From Rhodospirillaceae bacterium (GTDB lineage: Bacteria; Pseudomonadota; Alphaproteobacteria; Bin65), in NCBI GenBank assembly GCA_009840595.1, contig VXNK01000120.1, positions 1 through 38,143 on the forward strand: a DNA stretch of 38,143 bases. The letters are read 5' to 3'. Shown here one piece after another: positions 20,488 through 25,071 of the stretch. Under the pieces are notes generated by a model. That model was not told the origin of the DNA, searched no databases, and was given only the letters and a program-made list of their open reading frames with translations. The stretch's first letter is position 1; each line of letters opens with the position of its first letter. The position numbers and the translations under genes are program-made.

Positions 20488-20907
20488 CTACGCTATCCAC
20501 GGATCGACGGTCTTCAATCCCGCCGCCTCGAACGGCGCGGTGTCTCGCGTCGCCACCATCATGCCATTGGCTGCGGCGGTCGCCGCAATGTAACCGTCAG
20601 ACACTGGGATCGTCCGTCCCTCGGACCGCGCTTTCGCCATCAGCGCCGCATAAGCCTGCGAAGCCGGCAGATCGAATGCCAATACCCGCCCTGCGAACAT
20701 CGGCAGGATCTGTCGCTCCAAATCCTCGTGCAGCCGGTCCCGGCGGCGGCCGGCCGGCAGCGACTGCACCCCGAAGCGGAGCTCAGCGACAGTAATCGCG
20801 GACAGGTACAGCGTTTCCAGCGCCTGGGCGTCGAGCCATGCGGAGACGCGGGGCTCCGGAGCCCCGCGCAGCGGCTCCGACACCACGTTGGTGTCTACCA
20901 GAATCAT
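20488..20907 (-). CDS. PIN-domain ribonuclease toxin (FitB/VapC family)
   Basis: A 139-residue PIN-domain protein. The acidic metal-binding residues are all present: Asp5 (ILVDTNVVSE), Glu42 (SAITVAELRFG), Asp104 (PVSDGYIAATA) and Asp122 (ATRDTAPFEAAG). The order and the LPAGRRRDRL loop match the FitB branch of VapC-type toxins, which cleave RNA. The ATG overlaps the stop of the upstream antitoxin gene by 4 bases, the usual antitoxin-first arrangement. It looks intact and probably functional. Its specific RNA target cannot be inferred. Confidence 0.93.
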   Translation of the reverse strand: MILVDTNVVSEPLRGAPEPRVSAWLDAQALETLYLSAITVAELRFGVQSLPAGRRRDRLHEDLERQILPMFAGRVLAFDLPASQAYAALMAKARSEGRTIPVSDGYIAATAAANGMMVATRDTAPFEAAGLKTVDPWIA

Positions 20908-21155
20908 TCCAGATTGATCGGCCGGGCCGGAGCGGTCTCGCGCTGGGAGAAGCCCGCGAACTCCTCGTCCGTCAGCCCGGCGCGCCGGCCGACAGCGGTC
21001 AGCAGCGTCCCCAGCGCGGCCCGCCCTTCCGGCAGGACCGTTTCCGCCAGGATGGCGCGCACCTCCGCCTCGGTGCTGCGGCCCCTCAAGGCCGCACGCA
21101 CGCGCAAAGCGCGGTGCACCTCGTCGGACAGGTTGCGCACGGTCAGCATGGCCAT
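20904..21155 (-). CDS. ribbon-helix-helix antitoxin (FitA/VapB-like)
   Basis: An 83-residue FitA-type antitoxin. The RHH DNA-binding domain is N-terminal (MLTVRNLSDEVHRALRVRAA, then LRGRSTEAEVRAIL), and the C-terminal tail would wrap the toxin. The start is taken as the ATG at 21155, giving MAMLTVRNL; the ATG two codons later would also fit, while the ATG at 21197 lies within the operator and is unlikely. It is co-transcribed with the PIN toxin. The inverted repeats just upstream are likely its own operator. Confidence 0.9.
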   Translation of the reverse strand: MAMLTVRNLSDEVHRALRVRAALRGRSTEAEVRAILAETVLPEGRAALGTLLTAVGRRAGLTDEEFAGFSQRETAPARPINLE

Positions 21156-21183
21156 TGTCGATGATCCAATGTGCCTTCGATGC

Positions 21184-21216
21184 ATGCAATCTATCAATAT
21201 GATTGCATCAATGCAA
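21184..21216. promoter_or_regulatory. compound inverted-repeat operator of the fitAB-like pair
   Basis: ATGCAATC at 21184-21191 and GATTGCAT at 21201-21208 form a perfect eight-base inverted repeat with nine bases between. A second inverted repeat, TTGCAT-CA-ATGCAA, overlaps at 21203-21216, and TGCATGCA at 21181-21188 is itself palindromic. Nested half-sites of TGCAAT type are what an RHH antitoxin dimer or toxin-antitoxin hetero-octamer would bind for autoregulation. AT-rich against a GC-rich background, so chance is less likely. Confidence 0.65.
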
Positions 21217-21294: not shown

Positions 21295-22344
21295 CTATCG
21301 CGGGATCAGGACGGTGTAGTCGAGGTCGAGCACGACGCTTTCCGGGTAGCGGCCGTCGCCGTCCCTGTCCGGGAAGCCGGCGCAGGGCGTGTCCTTTGCC
21401 GCCACCGTGCGCAGCCGCAGCGCGCCGAGCGCGGCGTTGCCCGGCAGCTCCAGCCGCTCGACGACCTCCGACCAGGCATAGATCGTATCGCCGGCGAACA
21501 CCGGGCTCACATGCCGGCCGCCGTTGATCGCGGCGATCCGGAAGCCGTTGGCGAGGCCGTTGAAGCTGAGCGCACGCGCCACGCTCATGACATGGCCGCC
21601 ATAGACCAGCCGCCGGCCGAACCGGCCCCCGCCCTCGGTGTGCTGGTTGAAATGCACCTTCGCGGTGTTCTGGTAGAGCCGGGTCGCGGTCGCATGCACG
21701 GCCTCCTCGATCGTCATGCCGTCGACATGGTCGATCTTCTCGCCCGGCGCATAATCGCCCCAGCGCCACGCCTCGCCGGACAGTTCGTCGTTCCAGCCGT
21801 CCGGGTCGAACGCGGCCGGCGCCGCGAGCCTGCCCGCCGCAACCGCCCCGGGCAGGTCCGGCACGGCCGGCTCGGGCGCCGGCGCGCTGGAACCCCGCTT
21901 GCGCACCATCACCCAGCGGACATAGCCGAGCACCCTTGCGCCGCGCTGGTTCTCCCCGGTCGTGCGGACCCAGACGATGCCGGTTTTGCCGTTGGCGTTC
22001 TCGCGCAGGCCGATCACCTCGGTGCGGGCGGCGAGGCTGTCGCCGGGAAACACCGGCGCGCCGAACGTACAATCGGCATAGCCCAGGTTGGCGACGGCGT
22101 TCAGCGAGATATCCGGCACCGTCTTGCCGAACACCGTGTGGAACACCAGCAGGTCGTCCAGCGGCGCGCGTTCGTAGCCGACGGCCTGCGCGAACGCATC
22201 CGACGACTGTACGGCGAAGCGGCTACCGGTGAGCGCCGTGTAGAGCGCAGCGTCGCCCGCCGTCAGCGTGCGCGGCGTGGCGTGGCGGATGCGCTGGCCG
22301 ACGCGGAAGTCCTCGAAGAAGTTGCCGGGGTTGGTCTTGGTCAT
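21295..22344 (-). CDS. mcd: mesaconyl-CoA hydratase (beta-methylmalyl-CoA dehydratase), MaoC-like
   Basis: A 349-residue double hot-dog MaoC-family hydratase. The opening TNPGNFFEDFRVGQRIRHAT, the internal KTVPDISLNAVANLGYADCT, and RLYQNTAKVHFNQHTEGGGR with YGGHVMSVARALSFNGLANG follow the pattern I recall for Rhodobacter mesaconyl-CoA hydratase. That enzyme interconverts mesaconyl-C1-CoA and beta-methylmalyl-CoA in the ethylmalonyl-CoA pathway for acetyl-CoA assimilation. Its usual partner genes (ccr, ecm, mcd dehydrogenase, mcl) are not in the window. The gene symbol varies between papers (mch, meh, mcd). Its ATG at 22344 is the boundary of the AT-rich island. Confidence 0.87.
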   Translation of the reverse strand: MTKTNPGNFFEDFRVGQRIRHATPRTLTAGDAALYTALTGSRFAVQSSDAFAQAVGYERAPLDDLLVFHTVFGKTVPDISLNAVANLGYADCTFGAPVFPGDSLAARTEVIGLRENANGKTGIVWVRTTGENQRGARVLGYVRWVMVRKRGSSAPAPEPAVPDLPGAVAAGRLAAPAAFDPDGWNDELSGEAWRWGDYAPGEKIDHVDGMTIEEAVHATATRLYQNTAKVHFNQHTEGGGRFGRRLVYGGHVMSVARALSFNGLANGFRIAAINGGRHVSPVFAGDTIYAWSEVVERLELPGNAALGALRLRTVAAKDTPCAGFPDRDGDGRYPESVVLDLDYTVLIPR

Positions 22345-22394
22345 AAAGCGTCAAACATTAACTCATTTCAGCAATACAAACTAAAAAGTGAAAT

Positions 22395-22410
22395 ACGAAA
22401 GATTTTTCGT
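22395..22410 (-). terminator. possible hairpin at the end of the toxin-antitoxin operon
   Basis: ACGAAA-GATT-TTTCGT gives a six-base stem and four-base loop overlapping the stop codon of the 152-residue gene. A T-rich stretch (CACTTTTTAG on the minus strand) follows about ten bases later. Weak, since the stem is short and overlaps coding sequence. Confidence 0.3.
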
Positions 22411-22868
22411 CAAGCCGCTGCCTCAATTTCCGCTAAATCCTTGGTGAAGTCAAACACCATTTGTAGCGGTTCAATACTGGGGTGGCGTTCATTGTAGCTG
22501 TCTACATCCATCTTTAGCTGTTTGCAATCGCCCACAATTTGCTGCCTGCGCTGCTGAAATGACAGTTTCATGTGCGCACGAGACGCCGTACGCAAATCGT
22601 CCCATAGCACCAATTGTTTTCCGTTTCTTTGCACAGTCGCAGAATGCTTCACTCGGACTCGCCTGCCTCGCGAATCAGTCATATACTCTTCACGCATAGC
22701 GCGAGAAATATCTTCGGCGCATTTGGATATTGCGGCTGAAGGGTGCAATTCCCAAAGATTGTTCCGTATTGCCCAAGCCGCAATATCTTTTGATCGCGCC
22801 GGCCATTCCTCGCCAGAGAGACGATACTGATTGACGATCTTCTGCATTTGTTTAGTGTAAGCCGTCAC
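22410..22868 (-). CDS. uncharacterised 152-residue third gene of the HigB/HigA-ImmA operon
   Basis: Not recognised as a named domain. The GTG start at 22868 is supported by a strong TTAGGAGG Shine-Dalgarno that overlaps the stop codon of the preceding gene, so the two are translationally coupled. The N-terminal half (SKDIAAWAIRNNLW) could be a small helical DNA- or protein-binding region. A basic stretch, TDSRGRRVRVKHS, follows at residues 64-76, then LVLWDDLRTASRAHMKLSFQ and QQRRQQIVGDCKQLKMDVDS. The acidic end reads MVFDFTKDLAEIEAAA. No membrane segment, no signal peptide. I recall similar proteins next to HTH-ImmA antitoxins in other bacteria, but cannot confirm this here. It may be an accessory regulator or third partner of the toxin system. 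Confidence 0.82.
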   Translation of the reverse strand: MTAYTKQMQKIVNQYRLSGEEWPARSKDIAAWAIRNNLWELHPSAAISKCAEDISRAMREEYMTDSRGRRVRVKHSATVQRNGKQLVLWDDLRTASRAHMKLSFQQRRQQIVGDCKQLKMDVDSYNERHPSIEPLQMVFDFTKDLAEIEAAA

Positions 22869-22877
22869 TGTTGCCTC

Positions 22878-23999
22878 CTAAACCTCAATAGGTGTTGAGT
22901 AACCATACCCGTCTGTTAATGCAGTCGCGGTTACTGCGTGTCGAATTTTGACCTGGAACTTCTTGAATAAATCCCATCGGCCCGTCTTTTTTTGCAATTG
23001 CCCTGCTACGATACCCGGATGGCGTTCCACTATCCGAGAAAATCCAATCAGGCGTTCCGTAGAAAATATGGGATCCAGACGGTCAATAAAGTCATCAATC
23101 TCGGCCTGTGGGACACAAAATTCCGCAGCAGCTTCATTCGCTAACTGCTCAGAAAGCGGTAGTTCGTGCGATTCCGATAAATCGTCTGGTTCGTCGATAA
23201 TAATTCCAGCTTTCCCATCTTCATTCAAAACGTGCTCCAACTCATGGCGCAAATTGAACCAGAAATTATCAATACGATCAAAACGCATAGTTAAACCAAT
23301 CACTGGATTCTGATCGTCAATCCAAAAGCAAACCCCTTCAATCTTCGAACCTGGGACCGGTTCGACAACCAAGAACCTTACTCCAGCATTTGCTAAAATT
23401 TTGGAAACATGCCGCGCTTCCTCGGGATCGGTCAATCGAGCTTCAAGTTCCGTTAACGCCAAACGTAGATTCTTTTTTGAGAAATTCTGTACACTCAGGG
23501 CATTAGCCAGTTGTCGAACACGGAAAACCCATGCCCACTGTATTTGAGACATTCGGTTTGCTTCGCTGCGACGAGCTGCGTGAGAAAACACTATTTCATC
23601 TTCAATCGAACTCAATTGAAAAAATCGTAGTATGCGAGTTTCCAAAACTTCTACGTTTTCTGACGCTTCAATCCAGCCTCTCTTTATCATTTCGCGAACG
23701 GGAAACTTGTCTCTGAGTGCCGCAGCCCTCGCAATCACTTCGGAAGCAGGCATCGTCTTGGATAACTGATAGGAACTTTCCAAGTTTAGCCAATAATGAG
23801 GGCTCGTACCGAGGGCAGCAGAAAATTCCTTTGCTGTTTCAGGGGTAATACCACGTTTGCCAGCGATTATTTCATTTACGAGCCGCGCAGGTCGCCCGAT
23901 AATTTCGGCAAACTCAAGTTGAGTCCATTCCCGCGCCTGCAATTCGTCGCGCAAAAAATCGCCGGGAGGGAATACCTCTGCGGGAATTCTGTCAGTCAT
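22878..23999 (-). CDS. higA: HigA-type HTH antitoxin fused to ImmA/IrrE metallopeptidase domain
   Basis: A 373-residue two-domain protein. Residues about 8-75 form an XRE/HigA helix-turn-helix (FPPGDFLRDELQAREWTQLE, then IIGRPARLVNEIIAGKRGIT). Residues about 195-300 are an ImmA/IrrE-type zinc peptidase with HELEH at 252-256 and a likely third ligand, Glu289, in ANEAAAEFCVP. Single-domain HigA is about 100 residues, so the peptidase fusion is the extended form. It follows higB by 16 bases and has a GGGAGGA Shine-Dalgarno before the ATG at 23999. By analogy with ImmA, the peptidase could cleave the repressor part or another regulator on a stress signal; in this protein that is inference. Intact frame. 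Confidence 0.9.
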   Translation of the reverse strand: MTDRIPAEVFPPGDFLRDELQAREWTQLEFAEIIGRPARLVNEIIAGKRGITPETAKEFSAALGTSPHYWLNLESSYQLSKTMPASEVIARAAALRDKFPVREMIKRGWIEASENVEVLETRILRFFQLSSIEDEIVFSHAARRSEANRMSQIQWAWVFRVRQLANALSVQNFSKKNLRLALTELEARLTDPEEARHVSKILANAGVRFLVVEPVPGSKIEGVCFWIDDQNPVIGLTMRFDRIDNFWFNLRHELEHVLNEDGKAGIIIDEPDDLSESHELPLSEQLANEAAAEFCVPQAEIDDFIDRLDPIFSTERLIGFSRIVERHPGIVAGQLQKKTGRWDLFKKFQVKIRHAVTATALTDGYGYSTPIEV

Positions 24000-24015
24000 G
24001 TTTTCCTCCCTTCAT

Positions 24016-24312
24016 TTAGTGGTAGTCTACTATCTCAATGACATGTACCTTTTTATTGTTACCCTTTCCTTCGAATCTCACGATCAAGCGGTACTTGTCA
24101 TTGCAACGGAGTGAATGTTGGCCCTGTCGATTCCCAACTAATTTTTCCAACCGTAGTCCACGAGAGGCGTAGATATCCCTTTCATCCACGGCAGCCCGGA
24201 TTGCCTGCATAGCCTTTCGGAAGCCCTTCACGACGCCGGGTTGAAAGCCAGCGTCGAATCGAGGGTCGACTTCCAGGCGGTCGAGATCGTCATCTTCAAA
24301 CTCGACATCCAT
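24016..24312 (-). CDS. higB: HigB-like RelE-family toxin
   Basis: A 98-residue HigB/RelE-fold protein, a ribosome-dependent mRNA endonuclease family. Its C-terminal half is the family core: LRLEKLVGNRQGQHSLRCND, KYRLIVRF and VHVIEIVDYH, where the LKG-R-G-W-S-R-N-YR-F pattern and the final DYH are typical. The N-terminal 20 residues are unusually acidic (EFEDDDLDRLEVD). It is the first gene of the operon (toxin first, as in other higBA loci). No good Shine-Dalgarno precedes the ATG at 24312, and the likely promoter is very close, so translation may be leaderless. Intact. Confidence 0.9.
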   Translation of the reverse strand: MDVEFEDDDLDRLEVDPRFDAGFQPGVVKGFRKAMQAIRAAVDERDIYASRGLRLEKLVGNRQGQHSLRCNDKYRLIVRFEGKGNNKKVHVIEIVDYH

Positions 24313-24323
24313 CGTGAGCCTAG

Positions 24324-24376
24324 CATATATTGCTTATTTTGAATTGTGTCAATTACATTTTTACACTTGTTGTAAA
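24324..24376 (-). promoter_or_regulatory. higB promoter with overlapping inverted repeats
   Basis: On the minus strand TTGACA (24352-24347) and TATATG (24329-24324) are separated by 17 bases, a near-consensus housekeeping promoter. The start of transcription would fall about 5 bases before the higB ATG. AATTG-TGT-CAATT (24342-24354) overlaps the -35 hexamer, and TTTACA-N5-TGTAAA (24360-24376) lies just upstream. These are candidate HigA operators placed to block polymerase. Confidence 0.65.
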
Positions 24377-24441
24377 TTTAGGAATATAGACAAATCGCCG
24401 CATTGGGGGTTGAACACCGTGAGACAGCCGTCTCGAAGGCC

Positions 24442-25071
24442 TCAGCTGCCGGGCCGGGCAATATAGAAGCGCAGGAAGGCCTTCGCCTGCGGCGAATCCC
24501 ACGCGGCGGGACCGAGCAGGTAGCCGACGATCCTGTGCTTGCGGTCGAGCAGGAAGGTCGCCGGCAGGCCGCTGACGCCGAGGCGCCGGGCCGTCTTCCA
24601 GCGCGAATCGAGCAGGATCGGCAGGTGCCTGTAGCCCTGCTCCTCCCAGAACGGCCCGACCGCCGCCATGCCCTTGCGGTCGAGCGAGACGGTGAGCACG
24701 GCGAAGCCCGCCCCGCCCAGCGCCGCCTGCAGCCGGTCGAGCGTCGGCATTTCGTGGATGCAGGGCGCGCACCAGGTCGCCCAGAAATTGACCAGCAGAA
24801 CCTTGCCCCTGTAGCGCTCCATGGTGACCGGCCGGCCCTCCGCGTCGGCGAACGGGCCGAACTGTACGGCGCGCGGCTTCTTCATAAAGACGAAGGGCCG
24901 CGCCGTGCCGTTGAAGGGCGGCGGTTCGGCAGACGCCTTGGCGGCGCGCTTCGGCCCCGGCGCCGCGTCGGCGGCCGATAGCGGAACGGCGGCGGCGAGG
25001 GCCAGCAGGGCGGCGGCCAGAAGCCCGATCATCCGCGCTCCGAAAATCCGTTCCGTTGTCCGTTTCCGCAT
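24442..25071 (-). CDS. TlpA/ResA-like thiol-disulfide oxidoreductase
   Basis: A 209-residue exported thioredoxin-like protein. An N-terminal signal or anchor segment (MIGLLAAALLALAAAVPLSA, residues 14-33) is followed by the thioredoxin fold with active site WCAPC at 100-104 (VNFWATWCAPCIHEMPTLDR) and the cis-proline region VSGLPATFLLDR. This is the TlpA/ResA type, which reduces disulfides in the periplasm, often for cytochrome c or oxidase maturation. The ATG at 25071 or the one at 25032 could be the start; the latter begins right at the signal peptide. Divergent from argH with an 18-base spacer if 25071 is used. Confidence 0.92.
   Translation of the reverse strand: MRKRTTERIFGARMIGLLAAALLALAAAVPLSAADAAPGPKRAAKASAEPPPFNGTARPFVFMKKPRAVQFGPFADAEGRPVTMERYRGKVLLVNFWATWCAPCIHEMPTLDRLQAALGGAGFAVLTVSLDRKGMAAVGPFWEEQGYRHLPILLDSRWKTARRLGVSGLPATFLLDRKHRIVGYLLGPAAWDSPQAKAFLRFYIARPGS

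What the first reader, a model, noticed from the sequence alone, without database searches (positions are those of the whole stretch)
22410..22868. Uncharacterised conserved-looking protein with a GTG start coupled to the antitoxin-peptidase
Seen: GTG start with strong TTAGGAGG overlapping the upstream stop, a basic TDSRGRRVRVKHS stretch, a QQRRQQIVGDCKQL segment and an acidic tail. The alternation of basic middle and acidic end is reminiscent of a nucleic-acid-binding regulator with a partner-binding tail. I recognise no named domain.
Basis: inference. Interest (0 to 1): 0.6.

Follow-up and report, generated by a model that had tools for sequence, protein, structure and literature searches.

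The report
Degron-tailed third gene of toxin-antitoxin operon
The unnamed 152-residue protein is the third gene of a mobile HigB toxin / HigA-protease antitoxin operon; its family has not been named, and nearly all members end in the two alanines that mark proteins for destruction, which suggests a built-in unstable trigger for a bacterial self-shutdown (probably anti-phage) switch.

Summary
The ORF is real: its homologues are under strong purifying selection, and no Pfam, NCBIfam or PADLOC model matches it. It is the third gene (C) of an operon higB (A) - higA::ImmA peptidase (B) - C. In 38 of 38 distinct loci where B lies in the stretch held, C starts -14 to +26 bp from the end of B. The closest named system is PD-lambda-2 (same A-B plan, PADLOC B model E=9e-45), but its third protein is an unrelated 374-aa 'beta' protein.

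Two features point to a mechanism. (1) C proteins end in Ala-Ala in 30 of 39 distinct members (background ORFs 10/266; B 0/38), after linkers of 6-23 residues and with all four Ala codons: a ClpXP-type degron signature. (2) Every B with a C carries a C-terminal extension with DG[WY]G/D (38/38); none of 17 C-less B relatives does.

I propose a TAC-like switch: labile C docks on the B tail, and loss or displacement of C releases toxicity. Binding, degradation and phage defence are untested. The predicted fold is confident but matches no solved structure; a winged helix was not shown. B-C also rides IS1-family-like transposons, often without HigB. The window copy is an AT-rich insertion absent from five relatives tested.

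The parts
24347..24352 (-). TTGACA, -35-like hexamer of the operon, 17 bp from the TATATG at 24324-24329; the higB ATG (24312) lies 12 bp on, so the transcript would have almost no leader
   Evidence: read directly; a consensus match only, not listed by the scan because the second hexamer ends in G
24016..24312 (-). A: HigB-family (RelE-like) toxin, 98 aa
   Evidence: PF05015 E=9e-10, phrog_3066 E=5e-14
22878..23999 (-). B: HigA-type HTH antitoxin fused to an ImmA/IrrE (M78) metallopeptidase, 373 aa, HExxH (HELEH) intact
   Evidence: PF01381 3e-7, PF06114 3e-5, TIGR02607 1e-12, PADLOC PD-Lambda-2_B 9e-45
22881..22922 (-). C-terminal extension of B, ALTDGYGYSTPIEV; DGYG at 22902-22913
   Evidence: DG[WY]G/D in the last 30 aa of 38/38 B proteins with a C neighbour and 0/17 without
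22874..22880 (-). Shine-Dalgarno TAGGAGG for C, overlapping the TAG stop of B
   Evidence: read directly; B and C are in the same frame
22410..22868 (-). C: 152-aa protein of an unnamed family, third gene of the operon (GTG start)
22413..22418 (-). codons of the terminal Ala-Ala of C (putative ClpXP-type C-degron)
   Evidence: AA in 30/39 distinct members; Ala at -1 in 82%, at -2 in 92%, against about 10% at -3 to -15
22345..24440 (.). acquired AT-rich island that carries the operon (about 44-49% GC in its interior against about 70% outside)
   Evidence: GC profile; synteny with five genomes of the genus breaks at 22326-22344 and 24438-24455

Best explanation
C is the labile third component of a tripartite HigB / HigA-ImmA / C toxin-antitoxin module. 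Proposed working: A, B and C are co-translated; C folds into a compact alpha/beta domain that docks on the C-terminal DG[WY]G extension of B, and so holds the B-A pair in a neutral, promoter-repressing state. The exposed acidic linker ending in Ala-Ala makes free C a substrate of ClpXP (or a related AAA+ protease). When infection stops host synthesis, or a phage product displaces C from B, C is lost or released, B changes state (its M78 peptidase or HTH part), and toxic activity (HigB and/or B) arrests the cell: abortive infection, with the logic of toxin-antitoxin-chaperone systems but with a different third protein and with the degron on that protein. Shown: gene, operon, strict B-C linkage, co-occurrence of the B tail with C, conserved -AA end, horizontal mobility. 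Inferred: C-B binding, degradation of C, anti-phage function, direction of the switch.
For: C follows B by -14 to +26 bp in 38 of 38 distinct loci with B in the stretch held; in 385 Alphaproteobacteria genomes the 8 with C are exactly the 8 with the strongest B matches. B tail DG[WY]G/D: 38/38 with C, 0/17 without. AA end: 30/39, background 10/266, B 0/38, all four Ala codons, linkers of 6-23 residues. Terminal Ala-Ala is the main ClpX recognition element (PMC7652416), stabilising changes of the C-terminal alanines are known for alphaproteobacterial CtrA (PMC4433202), and TAC antitoxins end in LAA, with ClpP-dependent loss of CmdA needed for defence (PMC11618068). ChAD, a C-terminal antitoxin extension with a key Trp, is the docking site of SecB-like chaperones in TAC (PMC6377645). 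PD-lambda-2, with the same A-B plan, is an abortive-infection defence in which B alone is toxic, A rescues and C is needed for defence (PMC9519451). Phage and plasmid locations.
Against: No direct evidence of C-B contact: an AlphaFold2 model of the in-frame B-C read-through (pTM 0.63, no PAE given) leaves residues 366-383, which include the end of the B tail, below pLDDT 50. C is not SecB by sequence. Nine of 39 members do not end in AA (7 of these in AS, VA or AV; two in AR and GD), so a -AA degron is not universal. Co-occurrence of tail and C could be simple shared descent of one B clade: the tree needs only 1-2 changes. 13 of 37 B-C loci have no HigB match upstream, so toxin control cannot be the only role. 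No infection data.
Confidence: 0.5

Rival explanations
1. C works as PD-lambda-2C is said to: an accessory factor dispensable for neutralisation but required for defence, i.e. a phage sensor that activates the B peptidase directly; the -AA end only keeps its level low.
For: Same operon slot and the same A-B plan as PD-lambda-2, whose C is not needed to neutralise but is needed against lambda-vir.
Against: C has no sequence relation to the beta-type C: PADLOC C model no hit, hhalign probability 0.1% against a beta protein. The B tail found with C is absent from the two beta-type B proteins examined.
Confidence: 0.25
2. B-C is a general proteolysis-controlled repressor switch of mobile elements (as ImmR/ImmA controls ICEBs1), with C as labile antirepressor or corepressor; HigB control is one use and control of an IS1-like transposase another.
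For: At least ten B-C loci sit beside a divergent IS1-like transposase gene, and in nine sequenced elements between matching TIRs, most without HigB; the two genes share a 75-145 bp intergenic region in most HigB-less elements. ImmA cleaves an HTH repressor in the ICE of Bacillus subtilis (quoted in PMC10440598).
Against: Most HigB-bearing copies, the window's included, have no transposase; no operator or cleavage site was shown; palindromes upstream of higB are no more than chance.
Confidence: 0.3
3. C is a nucleic-acid-binding regulator.
For: Basic middle, net charge +5; N-terminal three helices followed by a beta hairpin recall a winged helix; very weak Foldseek rows to PadR and ORC2 winged helices (E 2.4-3.8).
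Against: No significant fold or family match; the operon already has a DNA-binding HTH in B.
Confidence: 0.12

Closest known systems
PD-lambda-2 anti-phage system (Vassallo et al. 2022, PMC9519451)
   Same: HigB-like A, HigA-HTH plus ImmA-type peptidase fusion B (PADLOC PD-Lambda-2_B E=9e-45), third gene directly downstream; abortive-infection TA-like defence.
   Different: Third protein unrelated (374-aa P4-beta-like in PD-lambda-2, 152 aa here). Here B has a C-linked DG[WY]G tail and matches the B model only from profile position 62 on.
Toxin-antitoxin-chaperone (TAC) systems: M. tuberculosis HigB1-HigA1-SecB, E. coli HigBAC, CmdTAC
   Same: HigB/HigA pair plus a third gene; antitoxin with a C-terminal extension found only with the third gene; an -AA degron in the module (antitoxin LAA in CmdTAC; PMC11618068, PMC6377645).
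   Different: Third protein not SecB by sequence; antitoxin carries a metallopeptidase domain; degron-like end is on the third protein, none on B.
RosmerTA (ImmA-domain antitoxin RmrA with diverse toxins)
   Same: ImmA/M78 domain protein used as antitoxin, often with an N-terminal HTH (PMC10440598).
   Different: P0002 matches the RmrA model only weakly (E=0.0012); no C-type protein is described there.
Two-gene HigB / HigA-ImmA modules (Arthrobacter, Rhodococcus, Sinorhizobium and others)
   Same: Same A and B genes and order.
   Different: No C gene and no DG[WY]G tail on B.
TA modules as cargo of Tn3-family transposons (PMC7157771)
   Same: Toxin-antitoxin genes placed beside transposition genes.
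   Different: Here an IS1-family-like element carries B-C, often without a toxin gene.

Membership tests
PD-lambda-2 | HigB-like first gene | tested here: met
   PF05015 E=9e-10; no PADLOC PD-Lambda-2_A hit
PD-lambda-2 | HigA HTH fused to ImmA-type peptidase | tested here: met
   PF01381, PF06114, PADLOC PD-Lambda-2_B 9e-45
PD-lambda-2 | third protein = P4-beta-like PD-Lambda-2_C (374 aa) | tested here: not met
   no hit for C or 26 family members; C model absent from the genome (model rang nowhere); hhalign probability 0.1%
PD-lambda-2 | abortive-infection defence | not testable with these tools
   needs phage plating
TAC (toxin-antitoxin-chaperone) | HigB/HigA pair | tested here: met
TAC (toxin-antitoxin-chaperone) | SecB-like third protein | tested here: not met
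   by sequence: no SecB family among Pfam matches of 26 members; by fold inconclusive
TAC (toxin-antitoxin-chaperone) | antitoxin C-terminal extension found only when the third gene is present | tested here: met
   DG[WY]G/D tail 38/38 with C, 0/17 without; binding untested
TAC (toxin-antitoxin-chaperone) | ClpXP-type -AA end on the antitoxin | tested here: not met
   B 0/38; the -AA end is on C, 30/39
ClpXP C-degron substrate | terminal Ala-Ala on an exposed tail | tested here: met
   sequence; AF2 puts the last residues at the end of a C-terminal helix with lower pLDDT; degradation itself not tested
winged-helix or RNA-binding regulator | fold match | tested here: inconclusive
   no significant PDB match
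RosmerTA | RmrA-type ImmA antitoxin | tested here: inconclusive
   PADLOC RmrA E=0.0012 over 59 residues

The most novel reading that the evidence does not exclude
B-C is a portable protease switch: a peptidase-repressor (B) whose state is set by a dedicated, ClpXP-labile small protein (C) docked on its DG[WY]G tail. Nature plugs different outputs into it: HigB for cell arrest in phages, plasmids and chromosomes, or an IS1-family transposase. This would be a third class of tripartite TA logic (neither SecB-TAC nor beta-type PD-lambda-2), with the degron moved from the antitoxin to the sensor.
Probability: 0.3. Interest if true: 0.8.

Novelty: new variant of a known kind. Interest (0 to 1): 0.6.

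Why it matters
PD-lambda-2-type loci are experimentally proven defences whose sensing step is unknown. This family supplies a small, foldable third component with two sharply conserved handles (the terminal Ala-Ala of C and the DG[WY]G tail of B), which makes the sensing and release mechanism of HigA-ImmA modules directly testable. It also shows that the third slot after HigB/HigA-ImmA is filled by unrelated proteins (152-aa C, beta, or nothing) and that the B-C pair can travel on IS1-family-like transposons without the toxin, so defence-system callers built on the beta protein will miss these systems.

Tried and rejected
Named families for C: Pfam (only zf-SAP30 at E=0.08), NCBIfam (KaiC E=0.03), PADLOC, PHROGs (one member to an unnamed family at 6e-4), PDB sequences (best 0.61; profile none): rejected as noise. 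Homology of C with the PD-lambda-2 beta protein: rejected. Fold relatives: Foldseek PDB best E 2.3, BFVD best A0A220NS53 E 0.011 (probability 0.99 but TM-score only 0.44/0.31, unnamed, could not be followed), VIA-align 2 best Z 4.0 (XLF, long helix only): nothing usable, and SecB did not appear. AlphaFold2 of the in-frame B-C read-through to look for an interface: inconclusive, no PAE, linker only 4 residues. Operator palindromes upstream of higB (TTTACA-N5-TGTAAA, AATTG-ACA-CAATT): not above shuffles. TIRs or transposase around the window copy: none. L006 match (Dehalococcoidia): an 18-residue remnant of the C tail next to an IS1-like element, left out of the family. Papers naming this third protein: none found in five searches on the system; one further search failed on its wording.

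Full report
WHAT IS THERE. The ORF at 22868..22410 (-) is exactly as described. It follows, in the same frame and 9 bp downstream, a 373-aa gene (23999..22878) that joins a HigA-type helix-turn-helix to an ImmA/IrrE M78 peptidase with an intact HExxH; that gene in turn follows a 98-aa HigB toxin gene (24312..24016). I call them A (HigB), B (HigA-ImmA) and C. The Shine-Dalgarno of C overlaps the stop of B. C evolves under strong purifying selection: pN 0.20-0.31 against saturated pS 0.84-0.88 towards relatives, with only this frame open in all.

AN ACQUIRED ISLAND. Inside the operon GC is about 44-49%, against about 70% on both sides. In five other genomes of the genus the flanking genes (a MaoC-like hydratase and a TlpA-like gene before argH) lie on one contig 55-940 bp apart, and homology to the window breaks at 22326-22344 and 24438-24455. 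The module is therefore an insertion specific to this lineage among those tested; in the sixth genome only the hydratase side could be aligned.

THE C FAMILY. Relatives were found in other Alphaproteobacteria, in plasmids of Paraburkholderia, Methylocapsa and Mesorhizobium, in Achromobacter phage CF418P1 and in dozens of IMG/VR viral contigs. In an even sample of 385 genomes of the class 8 carry it, in 398 of the phylum 4. Reduced to 39 members below 80% identity, C starts between -14 and +26 bp of the end of B in all 38 loci where B lies in the stretch held. In the class sample the eight genomes with C are exactly the eight with the strongest B matches (37-100% identity); eight weaker B matches (27-33%) in those genomes have no C. 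No Pfam, NCBIfam or PADLOC model matches any of 26 members; one PHROG of unknown function touches one member.

TWO MECHANISTIC SIGNATURES. First, the C-terminus. 30 of 39 members end in Ala-Ala, and seven more in Ala-Ser, Val-Ala or Ala-Val. Ala occupies position -1 in 82% and -2 in 92%, against about 10% at -3 to -15; the linker after the last conserved motif varies from 6 to 23 residues; all four Ala codons are used, so the constraint is on the protein. Background ORFs of the same loci end in AA in 10 of 266 cases, and the B proteins in 0 of 38. Terminal Ala-Ala is the main recognition element of ClpXP degrons (PMC7652416); changing the C-terminal alanines stabilises CtrA in Caulobacter (cited in PMC4433202); antitoxins of TAC systems end in LAA, and CmdTAC defence needs ClpP-dependent loss of its antitoxin (PMC11618068). 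I infer that C is a protease-labile protein; this was not tested.

Second, the tail of B. All 38 B proteins with a C neighbour carry a C-terminal extension with DG[WY]G (once DGWD); none of 17 B relatives without C does, whether two-gene HigB/HigA-ImmA or beta-type. In TAC systems a C-terminal antitoxin extension with a key Trp (ChAD) is the docking site of the third protein and makes the antitoxin dependent on it (PMC6377645). By analogy I propose that the B tail is the docking site of C. The caveat is descent: the B tree explains C presence with one or two changes, so tail and C could simply be inherited together.

STRUCTURE. AlphaFold2 on 26 members gives a confident C model (pLDDT 93.7, pTM 0.75): helices 3-17, 26-35, 43-59, two beta hairpins (62-72, 74-91), a long helix 97-128 and a last helix 142-151. 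No PDB match is significant; VIA-align 2 gives no Z above 4.0; one unnamed viral model reaches E 0.011 with low TM-score. So the fold has no usable relative at these tools' sensitivity, and neither a winged helix nor SecB is shown. A model of the natural in-frame B-C read-through (TAG read as Gln) has pTM 0.63, with residues 366-383 below pLDDT 50; without PAE it neither supports nor excludes contact.

MOBILITY. Many B-C loci lie in IS1-family-like transposons: terminal repeats GGTAGTGGGTCAGTTTGAA, direct repeats of 8-9 bp (CACCAGCG in L009, GTACCATC in L054, GTAGTTTG in L065, GAAAAATCC in L069, AGTCTCTA in L073, CGAAAAGA in L078), and a divergent transposase of about 290 aa with IS1 DDE matches (NF033558 E about 1e-14, below its curated cut-off; PF03400). 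Some carry HigB (L013, from a genome of the window's own genus; L054; L065); others carry only B-C, the transposase starting about 75-145 bp from B. Of 37 B-C loci, 24 have a HigB match directly upstream and 13 do not (some of the 13 have little upstream sequence). The window copy has neither repeats nor transposase.

HOW IT MOST LIKELY WORKS. PD-lambda-2 has the same A-B plan and is an abortive-infection defence: B alone is toxic, A rescues, C is dispensable for neutralisation but required against lambda-vir (PMC9519451). In TAC systems phage capsid or tail proteins pull the third protein off the antitoxin (PMC11618068; HigBAC as summarised in PMC11980606). My best model combines both: C docks on the B tail; free C is destroyed by ClpXP; a phage event that lowers or displaces C flips B and releases toxicity. 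Shown: gene, operon, linkage, both conserved signatures, mobility. Inferred: binding, degradation, defence, direction of the switch.

MEMBERSHIP AND NOVELTY. It works like a TAC or PD-lambda-2 module but is a member of neither as defined: it lacks the beta-type C and a SecB match by sequence, and the -AA end is on the third protein. I file it as a new variant of a known kind (tripartite TA/defence module). I did not find this third protein described in the papers searched; preprints and most subscription journals were not covered.

Noticed in passing
L008, L009, L069, L073, L075, L078 (HigB-less) and L013, L054, L065 (with HigB): IS1-family-like transposons with conserved TIRs and mostly 8-9 bp target duplications carry HigA-ImmA plus C as cargo, often without a toxin gene.
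   Followed up: partly
L107 and L113 (G004 C25, C26), same genus as the window: The same transposase type sits beside other genes there (an HTH protein in L107; a serine-protease-like protein in L113), as if this IS1-like group carries varied cargo; element ends were not established.
   Followed up: no
L046:1500-3850 and L074:1500-3836: B-C beside a different divergent gene, a protein of about 440 aa with a zinc-finger-like CxC...CxHxxAV motif that looks like a transposase: possibly a second element type that took up the pair.
   Followed up: no
L006:4306-5416: In a Dehalococcoidia MAG an IS1-like element carries only a remnant of the C-terminal end of C.
   Followed up: no
window 20488-21197 (-): A second TA pair close by: FitA-like ribbon-helix-helix antitoxin and PIN-domain (VapC-type) toxin, at the GC content of the genome.
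   Followed up: no
L082:2132-4876 and L101: Beta-type loci in which the gene before XRE-ImmA is not HigB-like but contains a GSYVTGKPRPGDFDACWDP motif recalling nucleotidyltransferases, so the first slot varies too.
   Followed up: no
window 24312-24352 (-): A TTGACA-17-TATATG promoter-like pair ends 12 bp before the higB ATG, so the operon may be transcribed almost leaderless.
   Followed up: no
BFVD A0A220NS53: Unnamed 238-aa viral protein is the only structural lead for the C fold (Foldseek E 0.011, probability 0.99).
   Followed up: no
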